Shown one piece after another: positions 2,932 through 33,161 of a DNA stretch of 62,431 nucleotides (positions are counted from its first letter, which is position 1; the number at the start of each line of letters is the position of its first letter). Below the pieces are notes generated by a model. The model searched no databases. It was not told the DNA's origin and saw nothing but the letters and a program-made list of their open reading frames with translations. The position numbers were made by a program, and so were the translations under genes. Origin of the DNA: Acidobacteriota bacterium (GTDB lineage: Bacteria; Acidobacteriota; Vicinamibacteria; Vicinamibacterales; JAFNAJ01); NCBI GenBank assembly GCA_023384575.1, contig JAHDVP010000033.1, positions 1-62,431 on the forward strand, in the 5' to 3' direction.

Positions 2932-5900
2932 ATGACGAAGGTGTTCACCATCCTCGGACAGGCCATCGCCACGACCCAGCGACGGCTCGTCGGGCTGTGG
3001 CGACGCGTGCCGGGCAGCGCGGCGATCGATGAACTCGCCGAACTGCTGACGCGTCCCATTCGCGCGCTGGCCGACGGGTGCCTGCGGCGGTGGCCGTGGC
3101 TCGCCCGCTGGGAGTGGCTGCTCGAGGTCGACCGGCTCCGTCGCATCCCGCCGGTGATGCTCGTGCTCGTGCTTGGTTACGTCTTCTACCGCGGGATCCA
3201 GACCACGCACCTTGGTCACATCGGGACGGACCGGCTGATCTATCCGCTGCTCAGCGCCATCTCGTACTTCAACCCGTTTCTCGGCATCGTGTCGGCCGCG
3301 CTCTTCGGCATCGGCGACCTCCTGCAGAAGCTCGTGGTGAACGACATCTACGGCAGCCGTGGCGTGGGACGTCTCGCACCGCTTGCGGCCTACGGGGATC
3401 TCAACTACTGGGGCGGCGTCGTCGGCTACGCGGTGGCCTACAGCTCGCTCGTCATGGCAGGCCTCGTGCCCGGGTTGCTGGCGCGTGTCTTCCGCCTCGC
3501 CGTGCAACGGACCATCACCTTCGTCCTCTTCAGGCGGGCGGCGGCCGCAGCCGACGGCGCATCGTCCGCCTCGCCCTACGCGGGCGCCCACGTGAGTGCC
3601 AGCCCGGTGAGCGTGCTCATGCCGGGAGGCGTCGAGCCGAGGTATCCGGTCGCGGAGCTGGCCGCGGCGGTGATCGGGGCCGGCGTCGGCGGTGCGGGCG
3701 TGATGTACTTCGTGGCGCCGACGCTCGAAGCGCCTGCCTTCCTGTGGCGTCCCAACCCCGACGTCTCGTGCCACAACCTCGAGGTGTCGACCTTTCTGCA
3801 ACAGCCGGCGCTCAGCCGGGGCGGCGTGGGCGGTGCGAGTGGCGGCCTGGTGATGAACAGCCTCGTGCCGATGCCACCCACTCCAGGCGCACCCGCAGGT
3901 CCCGAGGTGAGAGACGAGCCCGTTGCTCGGGAGCACCTGTCGCGGCCGCTCGTCGATCCTGAAACCGGGCGCGAGTTACTGGTGCACGACGGCTCGTACG
4001 AGGGAGGTTGGCCAGGGCAGGTCTGGCACCAGGGGCGCTGGATGGATCCGGCTGAAGCGGCCGCGTTGATCACGCGTTGGGACGAGGCGCTCTCGCGCGA
4101 CCGCCGCGAGTGGTTCGACCGCGAGACGAGGCAGTGGGAGGCGGACGTCGAGCGACGGCGCCGCGAGGAGGGCTACGGCCACGATCCGTATCGCGACGAG
4201 TGGCGCGAGCTGCCGCCCGAGGTCGCTCCAGTCGAGATTCCGCCCGAGGACCCCGACATCTGGAAGGTGCAGCGCACGAAGGAGGATCCGGGGTTCCTGC
4301 ATCGCATGTTCGTGGGGCCGAGCAGCGCCGATCACGTGAAGATGCACGAGCGGTTCACCGAACTCGACACGCTCCACACGCGAGCCCTCACCGAGTACCT
4401 CGACACCGTGCGCGCCGAGCGCGAAGCGCGCGAGAAAGGCGACACGTGGCTGGCCGAGGTGTATCGCGCCCGCCGCGAGCCCTGTCGGGCCAACGTCACG
4501 GCGATCCGCGGGGCGACGCTCGACCTCACCGGGCGCGTGGCCGACACCGCTGAGGGTGGCCGAGTTCACCGGCAGAATCTGGCGAAGCAGACGCAGTTCA
4601 GTTGGTGGAAAGTCGGCAGGGAACTCGTGTGGGATCCCGTCAAGGCGATCTTCAAACCCGATGTGGCCGACGAGCGGGGTGATGGCCCGATCGGCACGGC
4701 ATTCAAGCGGCTCAAGGCCGCCTCGGACGCGATGCGCGAGAACGCCCGCGAGCAACCCGCCCTCGAGGAGCGGTTTCGCGACGCGATGAACGCGACGAAG
4801 CTCCACATGGAGCAGTTGACGGCCGCGCGGCTGCGGGGCGATGCCACGGCCGTTCGCGTGCTCGAGGAGCAGGTGCGCGCCGCCCGCGAGCAGGCCCTCG
4901 AAGCCAATCACCAGCGCGGAGAGCTCTCGGCGAAGACGCGAGACTGGGAGAGGGCAGCCGCGCGCGTGACGCACCAGTACTACAAGTCGATGTCGGAGCG
5001 CATCGGTGCCGGGCAGGTTCAGTACAAGATTGGCCGGGCCGGGTCGCGCGTGGCCGCAAAGGTCACCGGAGCGTTCGATGCCGACCCGCGGATGCCGAAG
5101 AGCGTCAAGGGCGAAGCCGATGCCTGGGACAGGCTCCAGAAGGAGCACCGTCACGAGATGCAGCGCGCGCGTGAGCATCTGAGGGCGGGCACCGAGGGCC
5201 AGCATTCACCGGTCACGCTGACCAAGTACGAGGTCGAACTCGATCGGCGGTGGAAATTTCAGCAGTCAGTGGCCGAGCGCAAGATCGTGCGCTACGAGAC
5301 GAACCGCGCGGCATGGGAGCGTACGGGTGAGCAACTGAAGGCCGCGCGTCGGAGCGGCGATTCCGAGCGCATCATGGAGGCCTTCAAGGCGCACGAGGCC
5401 GCCGAGCGTCGCCTCGGCCAGTCGGTCAATCGCGGGCTGTCGGACGTCGACGTCAAGATGCAGCTCAAGCGGGCCCCCTCTGACGTCCAGCACGCCTGGA
5501 ACACCGACGTCGAGCGGTTCCGTACGACTCCCGTCCGCAGCCGCACCGTCGATCTCATCAACCAGAAGAAGCCCTGGGTCGTTGAACAGGCACCCGGGAA
5601 GTTCCGGCGCTTGTCGACAGACGACCTGAAGAGCGTGAGCAGCCGCAAGGGCGCGGGTCTCGACCTCGACCTGAACCCCGACGCGAAGGTCGTCGACATG
5701 CGCACGGGCCAGCGCGTGTCGGATGCGCAGCTGCAGGGGGCGGTGAACGAGGCCTGTCGCAGCCTGCGCATCGATGCGGCCCGGCAGGACATCCACGTGT
5801 CGAGCACGCGTCACCCGTCGGCCTATCGCGTGCCGGCGGGGCACGAGCCGTCCGACGTCCTCAAGCCCGACTACGTGCGGCGGTCGGGTCCGATGGACGG

Positions 5901-26068: not shown

Positions 26069-26521
26069 ATGACACGTGTGGCCCTCGCCCGGGCCGCGAC
26101 GACACTGGCAGCTGGCGCCCTGCTGATCGCGGCGCTCGCTCCCGTCGTGGCGCGGGCCCAGTATCGTCAGCCGGACAACCCCGCGGCCGTGGTCCGCATC
26201 GCCGTCGTGGAATTCAAGAAGCTCGTCGATGCCGGGCAGGTCGTCGTGATCGACGTGCGCGGACCTGCCGAGTACGCCGCCGGACACATCCCCGGGGCGA
26301 TCAGCGTGCCGCTCGAGACCGTCGCCGCCCGCGCGTCGACGTGGAAGGACTCGACCAAGCTGGTGGTGACGTATTGCGCTTGACCGGCCGAGAACACGAG
26401 CGCCCGTGCGGCGCTCACGCTCGCCCAGGCCGGAGTGAAGGACGCGCGCACGCTGCTCGGCGGGTGGGCCGCCTGGGTGTCCGCGGGCCATCCCGTGAGC
26501 AGGCGACCGACGCCCGAGTAG
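26069..26521 (+). CDS. exported rhodanese-like protein, probable selenoprotein (Sec at codon 105)
   Basis: ATG follows AAGGAG at six bases. Residues 1-31 are a signal peptide (ALLIAALAPVVARAQ). A rhodanese domain follows: VVVIDVRGPAEYAAGHIPGA, then VVTYCA and an in-frame TGA (26381-26383). Reading through gives PAENTSARAALTLAQAGV, then LLGGWAAW, the normal end of a rhodanese fold, and TAG at 26521 (150 codons). Relatives usually carry YCxCP here, so the TGA stands where an active-site cysteine is expected. A hairpin with G and U in its tip follows directly. Decoded as selenocysteine this is a periplasmic sulfur- or selenium-handling enzyme; decoded as stop it is a dead fragment lacking the active site's end. 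The next gene starts 16 bases on. Confidence 0.75.
26384..26433 (+). promoter_or_regulatory. candidate bacterial SECIS hairpin
   Basis: Directly after the TGA, CCGGCC (26384-26389) can pair with GGCCGG (26428-26433). Inside, GAGCGCC (26398-26404) pairs with GGCGCTC (26410-26416), leaving a five-base tip CGTGC. The tip's GU lies 23-24 bases after the TGA, in the window used by bacterial SelB. Confidence 0.6.
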
Positions 26522-26537
26522 CCGGAGCCGATACGCC

Positions 26538-27530
26538 ATGCCGACCGACGTCCCGATGATCGTTGGCCTCCTCGTGGGGCGCGAGTACGCGTTTCCACCG
26601 GCGTTTCTCGAGCGCGTGAACGCGCTCGGGGCGCCGCACGGCATCACGGCCGAGCACGTCAAGCTCGGAGGCACGCGGATGGGCGAACCCGCCCGCTACA
26701 AGGTCATCGTCGACCGGATCTCACACGAGGTCGACTACTACCGCGCGTACTTGAAGCACGCGGCCCTGTCGGGGACGTACGTGATCAACAACCCGTTCTG
26801 GTGGACGGCCGACGACAAGTTCTTCAACTACACGATTGCGTCCCGGCTCGGCGTGGCCATTCCGAAGACGGTCCTGCTGCCCCAAAAGGGGTACCCGGCC
26901 GACGTCGACATCCAGCCAGAGTCGCTGCGCAACCTGGAGTACCCGATCGACTGGGACGCGCTGCTCGACTACGTGGGGCGCCCCGCCATCCTCAAGCCGT
27001 ACTCCGGCGGCGGCTGGAAGCACGTCTACAAGGTTCACACCCGCGAGGAGCTGCTCGCCGCCTACGACGGTACCGCGCCCTACTGCATGACGCTGCAGGA
27101 GTTCGTCGACTTCGATCGGTACGTGCGGTGCTTCACCTTCGGCAAGACCGACATCGTGCCCGTCGCCTACGACCCCAGGGAGCGCCGGTACATCGTCGAT
27201 CACCACTACCTCGACGACGACCTGGGGGCGAGAGTCGTGCGTGACGCCCAGACGATCAACCTCGCGCTCGGCTACGAGATGAACACGATCGAGTTCGCGA
27301 TCAAGGACGGCGTGCCGTACGCGATCGACTTCCTCAACCCGGCGCCCGATTTCGAGCGCGACCGCATCACCGACCACTACTTCGATCTGGTGCTCGACCG
27401 CATGTCGAAGCTCGTGGTCGACCGGGCCCTGAACGGACCGGTCTCGGGGCCGTGGCCGCGGTGGGCCGAGATGGTCCGACTCGGGGCCGCGTCGGGCTTC
27501 GTCGGCGAGCCGTCGAGCGGCGGGGAGTGA
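26538..27530 (+). CDS. ATP-grasp ligase-like protein
   Basis: The 330-aa protein has an ATP-grasp layout: AILKPYSGGGWKHVYKV is the nucleotide-binding lysine/glycine loop, LQEFVDFDRYVR the hinge, and NTIEFAIKDGVPYAIDFLNPAPD the metal-binding strand pair. Such enzymes activate a carboxylate as acyl phosphate and join it to an amine or thiol. The N-terminal 120 residues are a substrate or pre-ATP-grasp lobe. It opens a run of four genes with gaps of 3-16 bases that encode three ATP-grasp-type proteins and an amidotransferase-like protein, so it probably works in a small-molecule or peptide pathway. Substrate unknown. Confidence 0.75.
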   Translation: MPTDVPMIVGLLVGREYAFPPAFLERVNALGAPHGITAEHVKLGGTRMGEPARYKVIVDRISHEVDYYRAYLKHAALSGTYVINNPFWWTADDKFFNYTIASRLGVAIPKTVLLPQKGYPADVDIQPESLRNLEYPIDWDALLDYVGRPAILKPYSGGGWKHVYKVHTREELLAAYDGTAPYCMTLQEFVDFDRYVRCFTFGKTDIVPVAYDPRERRYIVDHHYLDDDLGARVVRDAQTINLALGYEMNTIEFAIKDGVPYAIDFLNPAPDFERDRITDHYFDLVLDRMSKLVVDRALNGPVSGPWPRWAEMVRLGAASGFVGEPSSGGE

Positions 27531-27534
27531 GGCC

Positions 27535-28899
27535 GTGGCGACGGGAGCCGCCGAGGCGTGGCACGCCCTGCTCAGGACCGACGTCGAGCTGTCGGCGGCG
27601 TACTGGGAGGCGCTCTCGGCCGACATGCGGGCGGCGCGCCTGACGTTTGGCGATCGTCTGCACTGTCCGTTCCTGCGACCGTTCTTCCTCGGCCGAGCCG
27701 ACGTGCACCGGGTGACGCGCGTGGCCGAAGCCGTGGCGCGGGTGGGGGAGAGGGTCGTCGACGCCGCGATGGACTCGCCGGCGCTGCTCGACGACCTGGG
27801 GCTGTCGGACGCCGAGCGGGTACTCGCGGCGATCGAACCCGGGTACGGGACGGCGAGCACGGCATCGCGCCTCGACGCGTTCCTCCTGCCCGACGCGCTC
27901 AGCTTCGCCGAGTACAACGCCGAGTCGCCTGCCGGGCTCGGCTACTCGGAGACGCTCGCCGAGATTTTCGACGCGTTGCCGGTCATGGCGCGCTTCAGGT
28001 CGGACTACGACGCGTCGTTCTTCCGGCCGAGCAGCCAGATGCTCGACGCGCTGCTCGAGAGCTACCGCGACTGGGGCGGCACGGCCGACCCGCCGACCAT
28101 CGCCATCGTCGACTGGCGTGACGTGCCGACCTGGACCGAGTTCGAGATCCTGCAGGCGCGCTTCGAGGCGCGCGGCGTGCCGACGCTCGTCTGCGATCCG
28201 CGCGAGCTCGTGTTCGACGGGACCACGCTCGCCGCCGAGGGGCGGCGGATCGACCTCGTCTACCGCCGCGTGCTGATCAACGACATCGTGGCCCGTCCCG
28301 ACGAGACACGGGCGCTCGTCGACGCCTACCGGGCACGCGCGGCCTGCGTCGCCAACACCCTGCGGTGCAAGATCCCGCACAAGAAGGCGTTCTTCGCCGT
28401 GCTGACCGACGAGCGGTACCAGCACCTCTTCACCATCGAGGAGCGGGCGATGATCGCCGCTCACGTGCCGTGGACCCGGCTCCTGCGCGACGGCCGGACC
28501 ACGGCGCCCGGCGGAGTCTCCATCGATCTCGTCGACTACGTCCGCCGGTTGCGCGACGACTTCGTGATCAAGCCGAACGACGAGTACGGGGGAAGCGGGG
28601 TGGTGCTCGGCTGGGAGTGCGACGCGCGCGCCTGGGACGAAGCGATCGCCCGGGCGCTTGCCGATACCTCCGGCGTCTGGGTGGCCCAGCGCAAGGTGCG
28701 CGTCAGGCGAGAGGTCTTTCCGCTGGTCGAGACGCCGCATCGTGTGGCGATGCGCGACATGCTCGTCGACCTCGCCCCCTACCTGTTCCGCGGTCGTGTC
28801 GGGGGCTTCCTCACGCGGTTGTCCGCGACCGGGCTGGCCAACGTCACGTCGGGTGGCGGGCAGGTGCCCGCCTTCGTGGTGGAGCCCAGGCAGGAGTAG
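27535..28899 (+). CDS. circularly permuted ATP-grasp-like protein
   Basis: The 454-aa protein starts with GTG after GGGGAG, four bases after the previous stop. AEYNAESPAGLGYSE in the N-terminal half and FVIKPNDEYGGSGVVLGWE late in the protein are what one sees in permuted ATP-grasp proteins, where metal-site and nucleotide-site lobes have exchanged order. The last 60 residues (LAPYLFRGRVGGFLTRLSATGLANVTSGGG) carry the conserved end of that group. It should form amide bonds with ATP. Operon position makes it a partner of the two other ligases and the amidotransferase-like protein. The exact reaction is unknown. Confidence 0.7.
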   Translation: MATGAAEAWHALLRTDVELSAAYWEALSADMRAARLTFGDRLHCPFLRPFFLGRADVHRVTRVAEAVARVGERVVDAAMDSPALLDDLGLSDAERVLAAIEPGYGTASTASRLDAFLLPDALSFAEYNAESPAGLGYSETLAEIFDALPVMARFRSDYDASFFRPSSQMLDALLESYRDWGGTADPPTIAIVDWRDVPTWTEFEILQARFEARGVPTLVCDPRELVFDGTTLAAEGRRIDLVYRRVLINDIVARPDETRALVDAYRARAACVANTLRCKIPHKKAFFAVLTDERYQHLFTIEERAMIAAHVPWTRLLRDGRTTAPGGVSIDLVDYVRRLRDDFVIKPNDEYGGSGVVLGWECDARAWDEAIARALADTSGVWVAQRKVRVRREVFPLVETPHRVAMRDMLVDLAPYLFRGRVGGFLTRLSATGLANVTSGGGQVPAFVVEPRQE

Positions 28900-28902
28900 C
28901 GC

Positions 28903-30057
28903 GTGCCGTTCGACTGCCAGGTCCGCCAGCGTTTCGGCCAGGACGCCTGCCTGCTCGATTGCCCGACGCGCGTTCCGGTCGGGGGCTTCCTCTTCGAACG
29001 GATCGAACGCGAGACCCCGGTGCCGCCCGCCGACGCCAGGGTCATCGACATCGCGGTGCTCGACATGCACCACGGGTGGCCGAACCTCGGCCACGACGCC
29101 ATCGTCCACGCGCTGCAGACGGCCGTCTGCGACCTCCGACCGGCGCTCTCGGCGGCAGGGCTCAGCGTTCGCGCGCTGTCGTACGACGTCAGGCGCGGCC
29201 TTCGGATCCCCGAGCCGCCCGGCGGACGGCACGAGCTCTACCTGGGCACGGGCGGGCCGGGACACCTCGACCCGGCGATGAACGACGGCCGGCGCGAGGG
29301 CGCCCAGGGCATCGTCGAGGACGCGTCGTGGGAGGCCCCGTTGTTTGCCCTCTTCGACCGGATCCGCGCCGACGGCAGGGCAGCGCTCTTCGGCGTCTGT
29401 CACACCTTCGGCGTGATGTGTCGCTGGCTGGGCCTCGCCGTGCCGGTGCTGCGGGGGGACGTGAAGGGCGGCAAGAGCACCGGCATCGTCGAGAACATCC
29501 TCACGCCCGAGGCGCTCGCCCACCCGTGGTTCTCGCGGTTCGCGGCCGAGTTGCCCGATCACCGCCGCTTCCGCGTGCTCGACAGCCGGCTGTACGACCT
29601 GATCCCCGTCGGCGACTGGCGGAGCGACGATGTCGCGATCCTGGCCTACGAGACGCTTCGGGGCGGGCGGGTGCCGGGTGACGCCATCACGATGATCGAG
29701 GTGTCGCGGGATCCGGCCCAAGTCGTGCCACGGATCCTCGCGGCGAACCACCATCCCGAGATCGTGAATCGGGCGAGGCAGGTGACCATCCTCAGGCTGA
29801 AGAGGCGGCGCGGCCACGTCGACCCCGACTGGTACGCGGAACGTCTCAAGGCCCTGACCGAGCCGATCGCCGACGAGTTCGGCGACCGGTTGCTGCACCT
29901 GACGTCGAGCTACACCCTGCTCGCCCCGGTGCGGTACCACGTGCACCGCCTGGTGCGGGAGCGCGCGGCACGGCTCGGCGTGTCGATCGACGTCGACGAA
30001 CGGACCGCCGCCCTCGTCTACAGCCTGGCGCACGACCCGGTGCCCGCAGCGCTCTGA
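28903..30057 (+). CDS. class I glutamine amidotransferase-like protein
   Basis: The 384-aa protein has the nucleophile elbow ALFGVCHTFGVM with C166 and a later NHHPEI that supplies the His and Glu of a class I glutaminase triad. An N-terminal extension (about residues 1-45) and a C-terminal helical tail of about 100 residues are unlike plain GATase domains. It has no synthetase domain, so ammonia or a glutamyl unit would go to a partner, most simply one of the adjacent ATP-grasp ligases. The gaps on either side are 3 and 16 bases. Function in the pathway is inference. Confidence 0.75.
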   Translation: MPFDCQVRQRFGQDACLLDCPTRVPVGGFLFERIERETPVPPADARVIDIAVLDMHHGWPNLGHDAIVHALQTAVCDLRPALSAAGLSVRALSYDVRRGLRIPEPPGGRHELYLGTGGPGHLDPAMNDGRREGAQGIVEDASWEAPLFALFDRIRADGRAALFGVCHTFGVMCRWLGLAVPVLRGDVKGGKSTGIVENILTPEALAHPWFSRFAAELPDHRRFRVLDSRLYDLIPVGDWRSDDVAILAYETLRGGRVPGDAITMIEVSRDPAQVVPRILAANHHPEIVNRARQVTILRLKRRRGHVDPDWYAERLKALTEPIADEFGDRLLHLTSSYTLLAPVRYHVHRLVRERAARLGVSIDVDERTAALVYSLAHDPVPAAL

Positions 30058-30073
30058 CGCGCAGGAGACGCCC

Positions 30074-31612
30074 GTGATCCCGAAGCCGCCGTTTGCCAGC
30101 GACCTCACCCTGGAGCGGGAGCTGGCCGAGTTCGAAGCGCTCAAACCGCGCCTCGCCTCGGTGTGGGACGCGATGATCGGACGCGACGAGCACCACTGCA
30201 CGTCGGTCGTCGTGCCCTCGCTGACGCTCGACCAGGACGAGTTGAGCAAGCTCGCCGGCGCGGCCTTCTACGAGGAGCGTCTGCTCTTCCTGTTGATTCG
30301 CCTGCGCAACCCACGGGCGCACCTCGTGTACGTGACGTCGCAGCCCGTGCACCCGCTCGTGCTCGAGTACTACCTGCACCTGCTCGCCGGCGTGCCCGCC
30401 AGCCACGCGCGGGCGCGGCTCACGATGCTCTGCTGCTACGATGGGTCTCCGCGGCCGCTCACCGAGAAGATCCTCGAGCGCCCGCGCCTGGTCCAGCGGA
30501 TCCGCTACGCCATCCAGGACACCTCCCGCGCCTACCTGACCGTCTTCAACTCGACGCCCATCGAGCGCAAGCTCGCGGTGCTGTTGGGCATCCCGCTCAA
30601 CGGGCTCGACCCGAACCTGTCGTACTTCGGCACGAAGTCGGGCAGCCGCCGCGTGTTCAGGGAGGCCGGCGTCGACCTGCCGATCGGGCACGAGGACCTG
30701 CACGATCGCGACGACATCGCGCGGGCGCTCGTCGACATCCGCCACCAGCGGCCCGGCGTGCGCAAGGCGGTGATCAAGCTGAACGAGAGCTTCTCCGGCG
30801 AGGGCAACGCCCTCTTCACCTACCCGAAGGATCCCGGGCCGTCGGCCGTCCTCGATTCGCTCGACGGCGTCGAGTTCGCGGTCGATTCCGAGTCGCCCGA
30901 TCGGTACTACGAGAAGTTCCGGCGCATGGGGGGCATCGTCGAGGAGTTCGTCGACGCGGCCGAGAAGACCTCGCCCTCGTCACAGTACCGGACCACGCCG
31001 CGCGGCGAGGTCGAGCTCATCTCGACCCACGACCAGATTCTCGGCGGCGAGTCGGGGCAGATCTATCTCGGGTGCAGTTTCCCCGCGCACGGCGACTACC
31101 GGCGCAAGATCCAGGATGCCGGTACGGCCATCGGCCTGGTGCTCGTGGGCTACGGCGTGGTGAGCCGGTACGGGGTCGACTTCCTCGCGTGGCGGAACTC
31201 ACCGCACGAGGACTGGCGGGTCACCGCCCTCGAGATCAACCTGCGGGTCGTCGGGACGACCCACCCGTTTCTCGCCCTCAAGCTGCTGACGGGCGGAGAG
31301 GTGGACACCGGCTCGGGCGACTTCCTGGCGCTGAGCGGGCGCCCCAAGTACTACCGCGCCACCGACAACCTGCGGTCGTCTCGGTACCGTGGCCTGCTGC
31401 CCGAGGACCTGTTCGACATCGTGACGATGAACGGGCTCCACTACAGCCATCGGACCGAGTCGGGCGTGCTCTTCCACATGGTCGGCGCGGTGTCCGAGTT
31501 CGGGAAGCTCGGCATGACCGTCATCGCGAGCACGCCCGAGGAGGTCGACGAGTTGTACCGCCGCGCCCTCGACGTGCTCGACGCGGAGACGACGTACGGG
31601 CACGCGCGGTGA
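30074..31612 (+). CDS. peptide ligase PGM1-related ATP-grasp protein
   Basis: The 512-aa protein resembles the PGM1 peptide-ligase group, ATP-grasp enzymes first known from pheganomycin biosynthesis. KAVIKLNESFSGEGNALF is the nucleotide loop, ALEINLRVVGTTHPF the metal-binding strand, and the final about 100 residues (YYRATDNLRSSRYRGLLPEDLFD, GVLFHMVGAVSEFGKLGMTVIA) form a characteristic C-terminal domain. It probably joins amino acids or short peptides with ATP. It is last in the four-gene run; the next gene encodes a transporter. No obvious precursor peptide gene lies in the gaps. Confidence 0.75.
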   Translation: MIPKPPFASDLTLERELAEFEALKPRLASVWDAMIGRDEHHCTSVVVPSLTLDQDELSKLAGAAFYEERLLFLLIRLRNPRAHLVYVTSQPVHPLVLEYYLHLLAGVPASHARARLTMLCCYDGSPRPLTEKILERPRLVQRIRYAIQDTSRAYLTVFNSTPIERKLAVLLGIPLNGLDPNLSYFGTKSGSRRVFREAGVDLPIGHEDLHDRDDIARALVDIRHQRPGVRKAVIKLNESFSGEGNALFTYPKDPGPSAVLDSLDGVEFAVDSESPDRYYEKFRRMGGIVEEFVDAAEKTSPSSQYRTTPRGEVELISTHDQILGGESGQIYLGCSFPAHGDYRRKIQDAGTAIGLVLVGYGVVSRYGVDFLAWRNSPHEDWRVTALEINLRVVGTTHPFLALKLLTGGEVDTGSGDFLALSGRPKYYRATDNLRSSRYRGLLPEDLFDIVTMNGLHYSHRTESGVLFHMVGAVSEFGKLGMTVIASTPEEVDELYRRALDVLDAETTYGHAR

Positions 31613-31658
31613 TTGACGCAGCCGATCCGGCGTGCGCTGGAACGTGGCGCCTGATGAC

Positions 31659-33161
31659 ATGACGACGGTGGTGGAGACGCGTGACGGCGATCGCGGCGAG
31701 TACGGCCTGCGGCAGTGGATCGGCTGGGTGGTCGGGCCTTCCGCGCTCCTCCTGACCCTGCTGCTGCCACCTCCTCCGGGCCTCAGCGTCGAAGGCTGGC
31801 GCACGGCTGGCGCCGCCGGGCTGATGGCCGTGTTCTGGATCGCCGAGTCGATCCCGATTCCGGCGACCGCCCTGCTCCCGCTCGTGCTCTTCCCGGCCCT
31901 CGGGCTCGGCGACATCCGCGAGAGCGCGGCGCCCTTCGCCAACCCGATCATCTTCCTCTTCCTCGGCGGCTTCATCCTGGCGCTCGGGATGCAGCGCTGG
32001 CAGCTGCACCGTCGCCTCGCCATCGGCCTCATCGGCCTGATCGGCACCAGGCCTTCCGCCATCATTGCCGGGTTCCTGCTGTCGTCGGCCATCGTCAGCA
32101 TGTGGGTGAGCAACACCGCCACCGCGTTGATGATGCTGCCGATTGCCATGTCGGTCGTGCAGCTCGTGCCGCCTGGACCCGCGGCAACCGGCCGATACCG
32201 CTTCGGCGCCGCCCTGTTGCTGGCGGTCGCCTACGGCGCGACGACCGGCGGCATGGCCACCCCCATCGGGACGCCGCCCAACGCGCTGCTCGCGGCGTAC
32301 GTCGGCGAGATCTACGATCTCACCATCGGCTTCGGTCAGTGGATGCTGCTCGGCGTGCCGGTGGTCGTCGTGACGCTGCCCCTCGTTCACCTCGTGCTGA
32401 CGCGAGTCATGTTCACCCTCGACCGCGTGCCGCTCCCAGGCATGGCAGAGATGATCGCGCGCGAGAAGTCGCGGCTCGGCCGGCCGGGCAGGGCCGAGGT
32501 GGCGGTGGCGGTGGTCTTCGCGCTCACCGCGGCGGGCTGGATCTTCCAGCCGCTCGTGGCCAGGGTCGTCCCGCTCGTCTCGGATACGACCATCGCGATC
32601 TCCGGCGCCCTGCTGCTGTTTGCCATCCCCGTCGACCTCAGGCGAGGCGAGTTCGTCATGAACTGGGATGCGACCAAGGACGTGCCCTGGGGCGTGCTCC
32701 TGCTCTTTGGCGGCGGTCTCAGTCTCGCGGCCAACATCGACCGCCACGGGCTGTCGACCTACCTGGGCAGCCTCGCTGGCGGTCTCGAGGGCCTGCCGCA
32801 CGTCGTCATCCTGTGCGTCATCTGCTTCGGGATCCTGATGCTCACCGAGTTGACGAGCAATACGGCGACGGCCGCGACGTTCCTCCCAATCGCCGGCGCC
32901 TTCGCCCTGAGCCTCGGCGAGAACCCCCTGCTGTTCCTCATCCCGACGGCACTCGCCGCCAACTGCTCGTACATGATGCCGGTCGGCACGCCACCAAACG
33001 CCATCGTGTACGGCAGCGGCCTCGTGACGCTGCCGCAGATGGCGCGGGCCGGGTTCCTGCTGAACGTCGCGCTGGTACCCGTCGTTGTCGGGCTGCTGCT
33101 GCTGCTCGGTCCCTTCGTGTTCGGTATCGAAAGTGGGATCGTTCCCGACTGGGCCAGGTAG
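31659..33161 (+). CDS. SLC13/DASS-family sodium-anion symporter
   Basis: About 500 aa with 11-12 hydrophobic segments. The two inverted-repeat SNT signatures of this family are present: VSNTATALMMLPIA and LTSNTATAATFLPIA, each followed by a TPPNA loop (MATPIGTPPNALLAA and VGTPPNAIVYG). They form the sodium and carboxylate sites. Family members import dicarboxylates, citrate or sulfate; the exact substrate is not readable. A GTG nine codons upstream (31632) is an alternative start. It follows the peptide-ligase gene by 46 bases and might move a substrate or product of that pathway, or simply feed central metabolism. Confidence 0.9.
   Translation: MTTVVETRDGDRGEYGLRQWIGWVVGPSALLLTLLLPPPPGLSVEGWRTAGAAGLMAVFWIAESIPIPATALLPLVLFPALGLGDIRESAAPFANPIIFLFLGGFILALGMQRWQLHRRLAIGLIGLIGTRPSAIIAGFLLSSAIVSMWVSNTATALMMLPIAMSVVQLVPPGPAATGRYRFGAALLLAVAYGATTGGMATPIGTPPNALLAAYVGEIYDLTIGFGQWMLLGVPVVVVTLPLVHLVLTRVMFTLDRVPLPGMAEMIAREKSRLGRPGRAEVAVAVVFALTAAGWIFQPLVARVVPLVSDTTIAISGALLLFAIPVDLRRGEFVMNWDATKDVPWGVLLLFGGGLSLAANIDRHGLSTYLGSLAGGLEGLPHVVILCVICFGILMLTELTSNTATAATFLPIAGAFALSLGENPLLFLIPTALAANCSYMMPVGTPPNAIVYGSGLVTLPQMARAGFLLNVALVPVVVGLLLLLGPFVFGIESGIVPDWAR

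What the first reader, a model, noticed from the sequence alone, without database searches (positions are those of the whole stretch)
26069..26521. Exported rhodanese with TGA at a catalytic-cysteine position and a SECIS-like hairpin: probable selenoprotein
The TGA falls directly after YCA, where relatives have a second cysteine (YCxCP). The rest of the rhodanese fold continues in frame to a TAG. A nested hairpin starts right after the TGA, with GU at the tip 23-24 bases on. All three are what selenocysteine coding predicts, and standard gene callers would cut this gene. A Sec rhodanese in the periplasm next to ATP-grasp ligases is unusual.
Basis: partly seen in the sequence, partly recalled or inferred. 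Interest (0 to 1): 0.85.

Follow-up and report, generated by a model that had tools for sequence, protein, structure and literature searches.

The report
Exported selenocysteine rhodanese (CxU type)
The stop codon in this gene is almost certainly read as selenocysteine, which makes a selenium-containing rhodanese; it belongs to a kind of selenoprotein already described, but to a much wider and mostly uncatalogued branch of it.

Summary
The ORF at 26069-26521 encodes an exported single-domain rhodanese with one in-frame TGA (26381-26383), in YCA-TGA-PAENTSARAA. Every comparative test favours selenocysteine. The genome carries SelA, SelB, SelD (itself with an in-frame TGA) and tRNA-Sec. At least 128 other distinct sequences from several phyla keep TGA at exactly this codon, and 11 distinct relatives carry Cys there. 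The hairpin after the TGA meets the published bacterial SECIS rules, shows compensatory changes, and is absent from the Cys forms. A covariance model trained without the window finds it at 52.5 bits; Cys relatives score at most 10.4. It is not a new kind of thing: CxU rhodanese selenoproteins are listed in reviews and as NCBIfam NF041203. The window protein scores 77.7 bits against that model (cut-off 115), so it is a relative outside the curated set; only 7 of 61 Sec members pass. Function is untested. Most likely C103 and Sec105 in the rhodanese loop act together in sulfur or thiol transfer outside the cytoplasm. The ATP-grasp neighbourhood is conserved in part of the order only.

The parts
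26069..26521 (+). selenorhodanese gene (150 residues with Sec105, then TAG)
   Evidence: Pfam Rhodanese 67 bits over residues 48-138 read through the TGA; AlphaFold2 model with a rhodanese fold
26069..26158 (+). predicted Sec-type signal peptide (residues 1-30)
   Evidence: by inspection of the sequence (n-, h-, c-regions, ARA-Q); pLDDT about 60 in this part; no signal-peptide program was available
26381..26383 (+). UGA codon read as selenocysteine (Sec105 of YCAU)
   Evidence: TGA in 129 distinct sequences counting the window, Cys codon in 11 distinct relatives
26375..26377 (+). codon of C103, invariant partner cysteine of the CxU motif
   Evidence: invariant in 61 aligned Sec members
26381..26428 (+). 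bacterial SECIS element (UGA plus downstream hairpin)
   Evidence: covariance model R1 trained on 47 loci, window and known Vicinamibacterales left out: 52.5 bits, E 1.1e-13
26398..26416 (+). SECIS apical stem-loop, 7 bp, loop 26405-26409 with GU at 26406-26407
26538..27530 (+). neighbour d1: RimK-like ATP-grasp ligase, 16 bases after the rhodanese stop
   Evidence: TIGR00768 32 bits, far below its cut-off; linkage
27535..28899 (+). neighbour d2: circularly permuted ATP-grasp type 2
   Evidence: linkage
28903..30057 (+). neighbour d3: no Pfam match; resembles a class I glutamine amidotransferase by eye only
   Evidence: no match; linkage

Best explanation
The gene encodes an exported selenoprotein. 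SelB with Sec-tRNA reads UGA 26381-26383 as selenocysteine, directed by the SECIS hairpin just downstream, and translation continues to the TAG at 26519. The product is a single rhodanese domain whose active-site loop holds a Cys-x-Sec pair (C103, Sec105). Inferred, not shown: Sec105 is the attacking nucleophile and C103 resolves it through a selenenylsulfide bond, so the protein transfers sulfane sulfur or exchanges thiols with a small acceptor outside the cytoplasm. The Sec reading is held at about 0.97; the mechanism at about 0.4. The confidence below is for the Sec reading together with the rhodanese fold and export.
For: Machinery: SelB 314 bits, SelA 529 bits, SelD 342 bits with an in-frame TGA (SACAG-TGA-AGK), tRNA-Sec 61.8 bits with anticodon TCA. 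Conservation: TGA at the same codon in 20 of 100 genomes of the order (own included), all with SelA, while none of about 17 genomes without a convincing SelA has the TGA form (Fisher p 0.02). 80 of 81 examined hits of a genome-wide pattern scan are real rhodaneses with the TGA, in Acidobacteriota, Chloroflexota, Myxococcota/Thermodesulfobacteriota, Rokuibacteriota, Gemmatimonadota, Nitrospirota and others. Cys relatives keep Cys at the codon. SECIS: synonymous sites frozen only in the hairpin (AGY 128/129, GCC 127/129, third base of codon 8 always U or G); inner three pairs formed in 129/129 Sec sequences, pair 21-33 CG 110 and UA 10; covariation above all 500 shuffles. All 20 TGA relatives score 38-62 bits with R1, Cys relatives at most 10.4; it is the only strong site in the 5.9-Mb genome. 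The hairpin meets the four published bSECIS constraints (PMC13188914). Fold: confident rhodanese model, best match 3tp9 Z 18.0, GlpE Z 15.2.
Against: No protein-level proof (no mass spectrometry, no 75Se labelling). Hairpin stability of the single sequence is not exceptional against synonymous recoding. Export is inferred from the signal peptide by eye. For the mechanism: no activity data, and which of C103 and Sec105 occupies the canonical catalytic position is unresolved.
Confidence: 0.93

Rival explanations
1. The TGA is a true stop or a decaying pseudogene; the downstream frame is a relic.
For: At this GC content an open frame of 45 codons after the TGA is expected about 60% of the time.
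Against: The same codon is TGA in at least 128 other sequences across phyla, at 33-52% protein identity to the window in the aligned set and with invariant residues on both sides of it; no other lesions; hairpin conserved and covarying.
Confidence: 0.01
2. The UGA is decoded by general read-through or as tryptophan or cysteine, not as selenocysteine.
For: Cys is the residue in the non-TGA relatives.
Against: The complete Sec machinery is present; the covarying SECIS hairpin exists only in TGA forms; no TGA form was found in a genome without SelA.
Confidence: 0.02
3. The protein is a redox (thiol or peroxide) enzyme using a CxU selenenylsulfide couple, and not a sulfurtransferase.
For: Most selenoproteins of unknown function resemble thiol oxidoreductases, as the 2022 review argues (PMC9312934); the CxU pair is invariant in 61 members; export fits redox roles.
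Against: The fold is that of rhodaneses; nothing here measures either activity.
Confidence: 0.45
4. The selenorhodanese is a working part of the ATP-grasp gene cluster (handling a sulfur or thiol moiety of a peptide-like product).
For: Rhodanese and d1-d2-d3 or d1-d2 are neighbours in G000, G002, G003, G038, G047 and G053, with partial evidence in G015 and G091; in the L183 (G002) neighbourhood a YbdK/GCS2 ligase, 520.9 bits, lies between them, and by eye others look the same.
Against: Many genomes have one without the other; no linkage was seen in the loci outside the order that were checked; the window's own genome has no GCS2 gene.
Confidence: 0.3

Closest known systems
NCBIfam NF041203 rhodanese_LYCAU / 'rhodanese-like domain-containing protein form 3' (CxU) of PMC13188914
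   Same: Single rhodanese domain, YC-x-U motif at the same place, in-frame UGA
   Different: The window protein scores 77.7 bits against a cut-off of 115; the members found to pass group with Myxococcota/Thermodesulfobacteriota/Nitrospirota records, while the window sits in an Acidobacteriota (Vicinamibacterales) clade
GlpE / PspE single-domain thiosulfate sulfurtransferases
   Same: Fold (GlpE 1gmx Z 15.2), overall motifs DxR, GH, GG
   Different: Active-site loop is CAUPAENTSAR in place of a single-Cys loop (CYHGNSS in GlpE); Sec; signal peptide
BH2092-type rhodaneses (3nhv, loop YCWGPACNGA)
   Same: Loop of the same length, gapless alignment with YC on C103
   Different: Gly where the window has Sec; no selenocysteine
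TsoB (NF045694), rhodanese/DsbD fusion selenoprotein
   Same: Rhodanese-type domain with Sec
   Different: Fusion with UxxxxU motif (PMC13188914); window 26 bits against a cut-off of 805

Membership tests
Bacterial selenoproteins (UGA-Sec) | Sec decoding machinery (SelA, SelB, SelD, tRNA-Sec) in the genome | tested here: met
Bacterial selenoproteins (UGA-Sec) | In-frame UGA conserved across species, with Cys in other homologues | tested here: met
   129 Sec (with the window) and 11 Cys distinct sequences
Bacterial selenoproteins (UGA-Sec) | bSECIS: 3-9 nt loop, 4-16 bp stem, G in the first two loop positions, 16-37 nt spacing, MFE at most -7.5 | tested here: met
   5-nt loop, 7 bp, G second then U, 21 nt spacing, -20.9 kcal/mol
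Bacterial selenoproteins (UGA-Sec) | Selenium present in the protein | not testable with these tools
   needs mass spectrometry or 75Se labelling
Rhodanese domain (Pfam PF00581) | Profile score above the gathering cut-off | tested here: met
   67.1 bits against 22.2
Rhodanese domain (Pfam PF00581) | Rhodanese fold | tested here: met
   AlphaFold2 model, 3tp9 Z 18.0 over 105 residues at 1.3 A, Foldseek E 8.7e-10
NF041203 rhodanese_LYCAU | CxU motif in the rhodanese loop | tested here: met
   YCAU
NF041203 rhodanese_LYCAU | Score above the curated cut-off of 115 bits | tested here: not met
   77.7 bits; 0 of 100 genomes of the order over the cut-off
Thiosulfate sulfurtransferases (enzyme activity) | Sulfur transfer through a persulfide on the loop nucleophile | not testable with these tools
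   no activity data

The most novel reading that the evidence does not exclude
NF041203 describes only one branch of a large selenorhodanese family spread over many phyla, with an almost frozen SECIS hairpin and Sec forms fused to CPA1 antiporters and DedA proteins; in Vicinamibacterales it has been recruited to an ATP-grasp/GCS2 cluster that makes a sulfur-containing peptide-like metabolite, which would give a Sec rhodanese a defined pathway.
Probability: 0.15. Interest if true: 0.6.

Novelty: new member of a known kind. Interest (0 to 1): 0.4.

Why it matters
Standard gene callers truncate such genes at the TGA, and the one curated model misses most of them (7 of 61 pass). Recognising the wider family would correct many genomes of soil and sediment bacteria. 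The SECIS hairpin, almost invariant across phyla, is a clean marker for finding the rest. The gene also gives a small exported protein on which to test what selenium adds to rhodanese chemistry.

Tried and rejected
Hairpin stability alone as evidence: rejected, since synonymous recodings fold nearly as well. Length of the open frame after the TGA: rejected as evidence. Filing under NF041203: rejected because the cut-off is not met. Assigning Sec105 to the canonical catalytic position: not accepted. The profile aligns residue 105 without gaps to the catalytic Cys of 6mxv, but 3tp9 and BH2092 align C103 there, and the AlphaFold2 strand ends at residue 102, right before C103. Searches failed on a wrong frame and were repeated; one literature look-up failed on syntax. 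No paper in the held library combines DedA, rhodanese and selenocysteine.

Full report
Observation. The frame 26069-26521 on the + strand reads MTRVALARAATTLAAGALLIAALAPVVARAQ... through ...LVVTYCA-TGA-PAENTSARAALTLAQAGVKDARTLLGGWAAW... to TAG. The TGA is at 26381-26383. There is a good ribosome-binding site and, by inspection, a signal peptide. Pfam Rhodanese matches residues 48-138 across the TGA at 67.1 bits.

Sec machinery. The genome (5.89 Mb, 112 contigs, rated 100% complete) has SelB (314 bits, over cut-off), SelA (529 bits), SelD (342 bits) and tRNA-Sec (61.8 bits, over the gathering score; ARAGORN calls tRNA-SeC with anticodon TCA). That SelD has its own in-frame TGA near the N-terminus (SACAG-TGA-AGK), where Sec-containing SelD proteins carry Sec (own knowledge), so it is a second likely selenoprotein in the genome.

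Relatives. In 100 genomes of the same order (own included) the read-through protein finds many homologues with exactly one TGA. Translation shows YC[AST]-TGA at the same place, with Cys forms YCAC or YCSC in other lineages. All 20 genomes counted with the TGA form have SelA over the cut-off, while about 17 of the 100 lack a convincing SelA and none of those has the TGA form (Fisher p 0.02, modest because SelA is common in the order). Of the first 81 matches, 80 are real rhodaneses with the TGA on inspection; the exception is L099 (the script's own OK/NO flag was too strict and is not used). After removal of duplicates there are 129 Sec sequences including the window, and 11 Cys sequences. Named hosts include Acidobacteriota, Chloroflexota, Thermomicrobiota, Myxococcota and Thermodesulfobacteriota, Nitrospirota, Gemmatimonadota and Candidatus Rokuibacteriota. 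In 61 aligned members D62, R64, Y102, C103, residue 105, E108, S111, A112, A114, G131 and G132 are invariant, on both sides of the TGA. Several of these (Y102, C103, 105, E108, A112, A114) are invariant partly by selection, since the scan pattern required them; D62, R64, G131 and G132 are not.

SECIS. The codons AGY GCC NGK GCG GYR after the TGA are nearly frozen at their third positions in the Sec forms only. Codon 6 is AGC or AGU in 128 of 129 although the scan pattern allowed TCN; codon 7 is GCC in 127; codon 8 ends in U or G in all 129; codon 9 is GCG in 124. The inner three pairs form in all 129 Sec sequences. Pair 21-33 is CG in 110 and UA in 10. Among 11 Cys sequences no stem exceeds two pairs from the loop. 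On 47 loci from outside the known members of the order, the covariation score (0.219) and cells changed on both sides (8) exceed all 500 shuffles, and slid controls fall to 0.11 or less; RNAalifold finds the same stem by itself. A covariance model from those 47 loci finds the window site at 52.5 bits, E 1.1e-13, next best 11.6. All 20 TGA relatives score 38-62 bits and all Cys relatives 10.4 or less. In the whole own genome the next site has 20.2 bits. Part of the score comes from the conserved protein motif, but the Cys relatives share some of it. The element meets the published bSECIS constraints (PMC13188914), including G followed by G or U in the loop. Single-sequence stability is unremarkable against synonymous recodings, so the case rests on comparison.

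Structure and mechanism. AlphaFold2 gives a confident domain (ten-residue blocks at pLDDT 93-98 from residue 41 to 140). Rhodaneses fill the list of matches: 3tp9 Z 18.0, 1.3 A over 105 residues; 6mxv Z 16.8; GlpE Z 15.2. The loop is C103-A-U105-P-A-E-N-T-S111. Where the canonical cysteine lies is unsettled. The family profile puts residue 105 on the catalytic Cys of 6mxv without gaps. The same profile puts C103 on the Cys of 3tp9 with a two-residue gap and on YC of BH2092. The predicted strand ends at 102, which favours C103; the helix start at 109 favours residue 105. Either way Sec is in the active-site loop and C103 is its invariant partner. I commit to Sec105 as attacking nucleophile with C103 resolving it, in sulfur transfer or thiol exchange outside the cytoplasm, and hold that at about 0.4.

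Relation to known families. PMC13188914 lists 'rhodanese-like domain-containing protein form 3', CxU, NF041203, and PMC9312934 lists a CxU rhodanese too. The window scores 77.7 bits against the NF041203 cut-off of 115. None of the 100 genomes of the order has a match over it, and 7 of 61 Sec members do, among them L106, L119, L147, L152 and L170. The tree puts these five in one well-supported group and the window in a Vicinamibacterales group of 30 rows (100/90) that includes ten Cys rows. Cys needs four changes on the tree, two of them forced by well-supported branches. So the gene is a selenoprotein of a known kind, outside the curated set.

Neighbourhood. Downstream in the window are a RimK-like ATP-grasp (26538-27530), a circularly permuted ATP-grasp (27535-28899), an unassigned protein (28903-30057), a BesA/PGM1-like ATP-grasp (30074-31612) and a DASS transporter (31632-33161). 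The rhodanese lies near two or three of the first genes in G002, G003, G038, G047 and G053, with partial evidence in G015 (a d2 fragment) and G091. In L183 a YbdK/GCS2 carboxylate-amine ligase lies between them (217 bits Pfam, 521 bits NCBIfam); similar frames in L188, L190 and L196 were seen by eye only. The own genome has no GCS2. Many genomes have the rhodanese without the cluster and the reverse. The linkage is real but not general.

Verdict. Confirmed as a selenoprotein on comparative grounds; novelty modest; function open.

Noticed in passing
L166:173-1759 (-), L175:1001-2635 (-), L138:2-2083 (+), L125:417-2042 (-), L059:235-1836 (+): Sec-rhodanese domain at the C-terminus of a Na+/H+ exchanger (PF00999 plus PF00581, read through the TGA), in Chloroflexota, Thermomicrobiota and Vicinamibacterales.
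   Followed up: partly
L124:5255-6202 (+), L148:5043-5975 (+), L157:2562-3566 (-): Sec-rhodanese domain fused to a DedA/VTT membrane domain (PF09335), in Acidobacteriota and a Pseudomonadota record.
   Followed up: partly
L134:3121-3462 and 3776-4117 (+): Two Sec-rhodanese genes side by side, both with the TGA and the hairpin.
   Followed up: no
L155, - strand, about 500 bases apart: A Sec form and a Cys form of the rhodanese next to each other, a natural pair for comparing Sec with Cys.
   Followed up: no
window 26538-33161: Cluster of three ATP-grasp proteins, an unassigned protein and a DASS transporter; relatives may add a YbdK/GCS2 ligase. Possibly a peptide-like or gamma-glutamyl metabolite.
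   Followed up: partly
L010 (own genome C14:89153-90079, - strand): SelD of the same genome has its own in-frame TGA (SACAG-TGA-AGK), and a second SelD-like gene without TGA lies at C50.
   Followed up: partly
own genome C16:44228-44287 (-), L203: Second-best match of the SECIS model in the genome (20.2 bits, E 0.03); not examined for an in-frame TGA.
   Followed up: no
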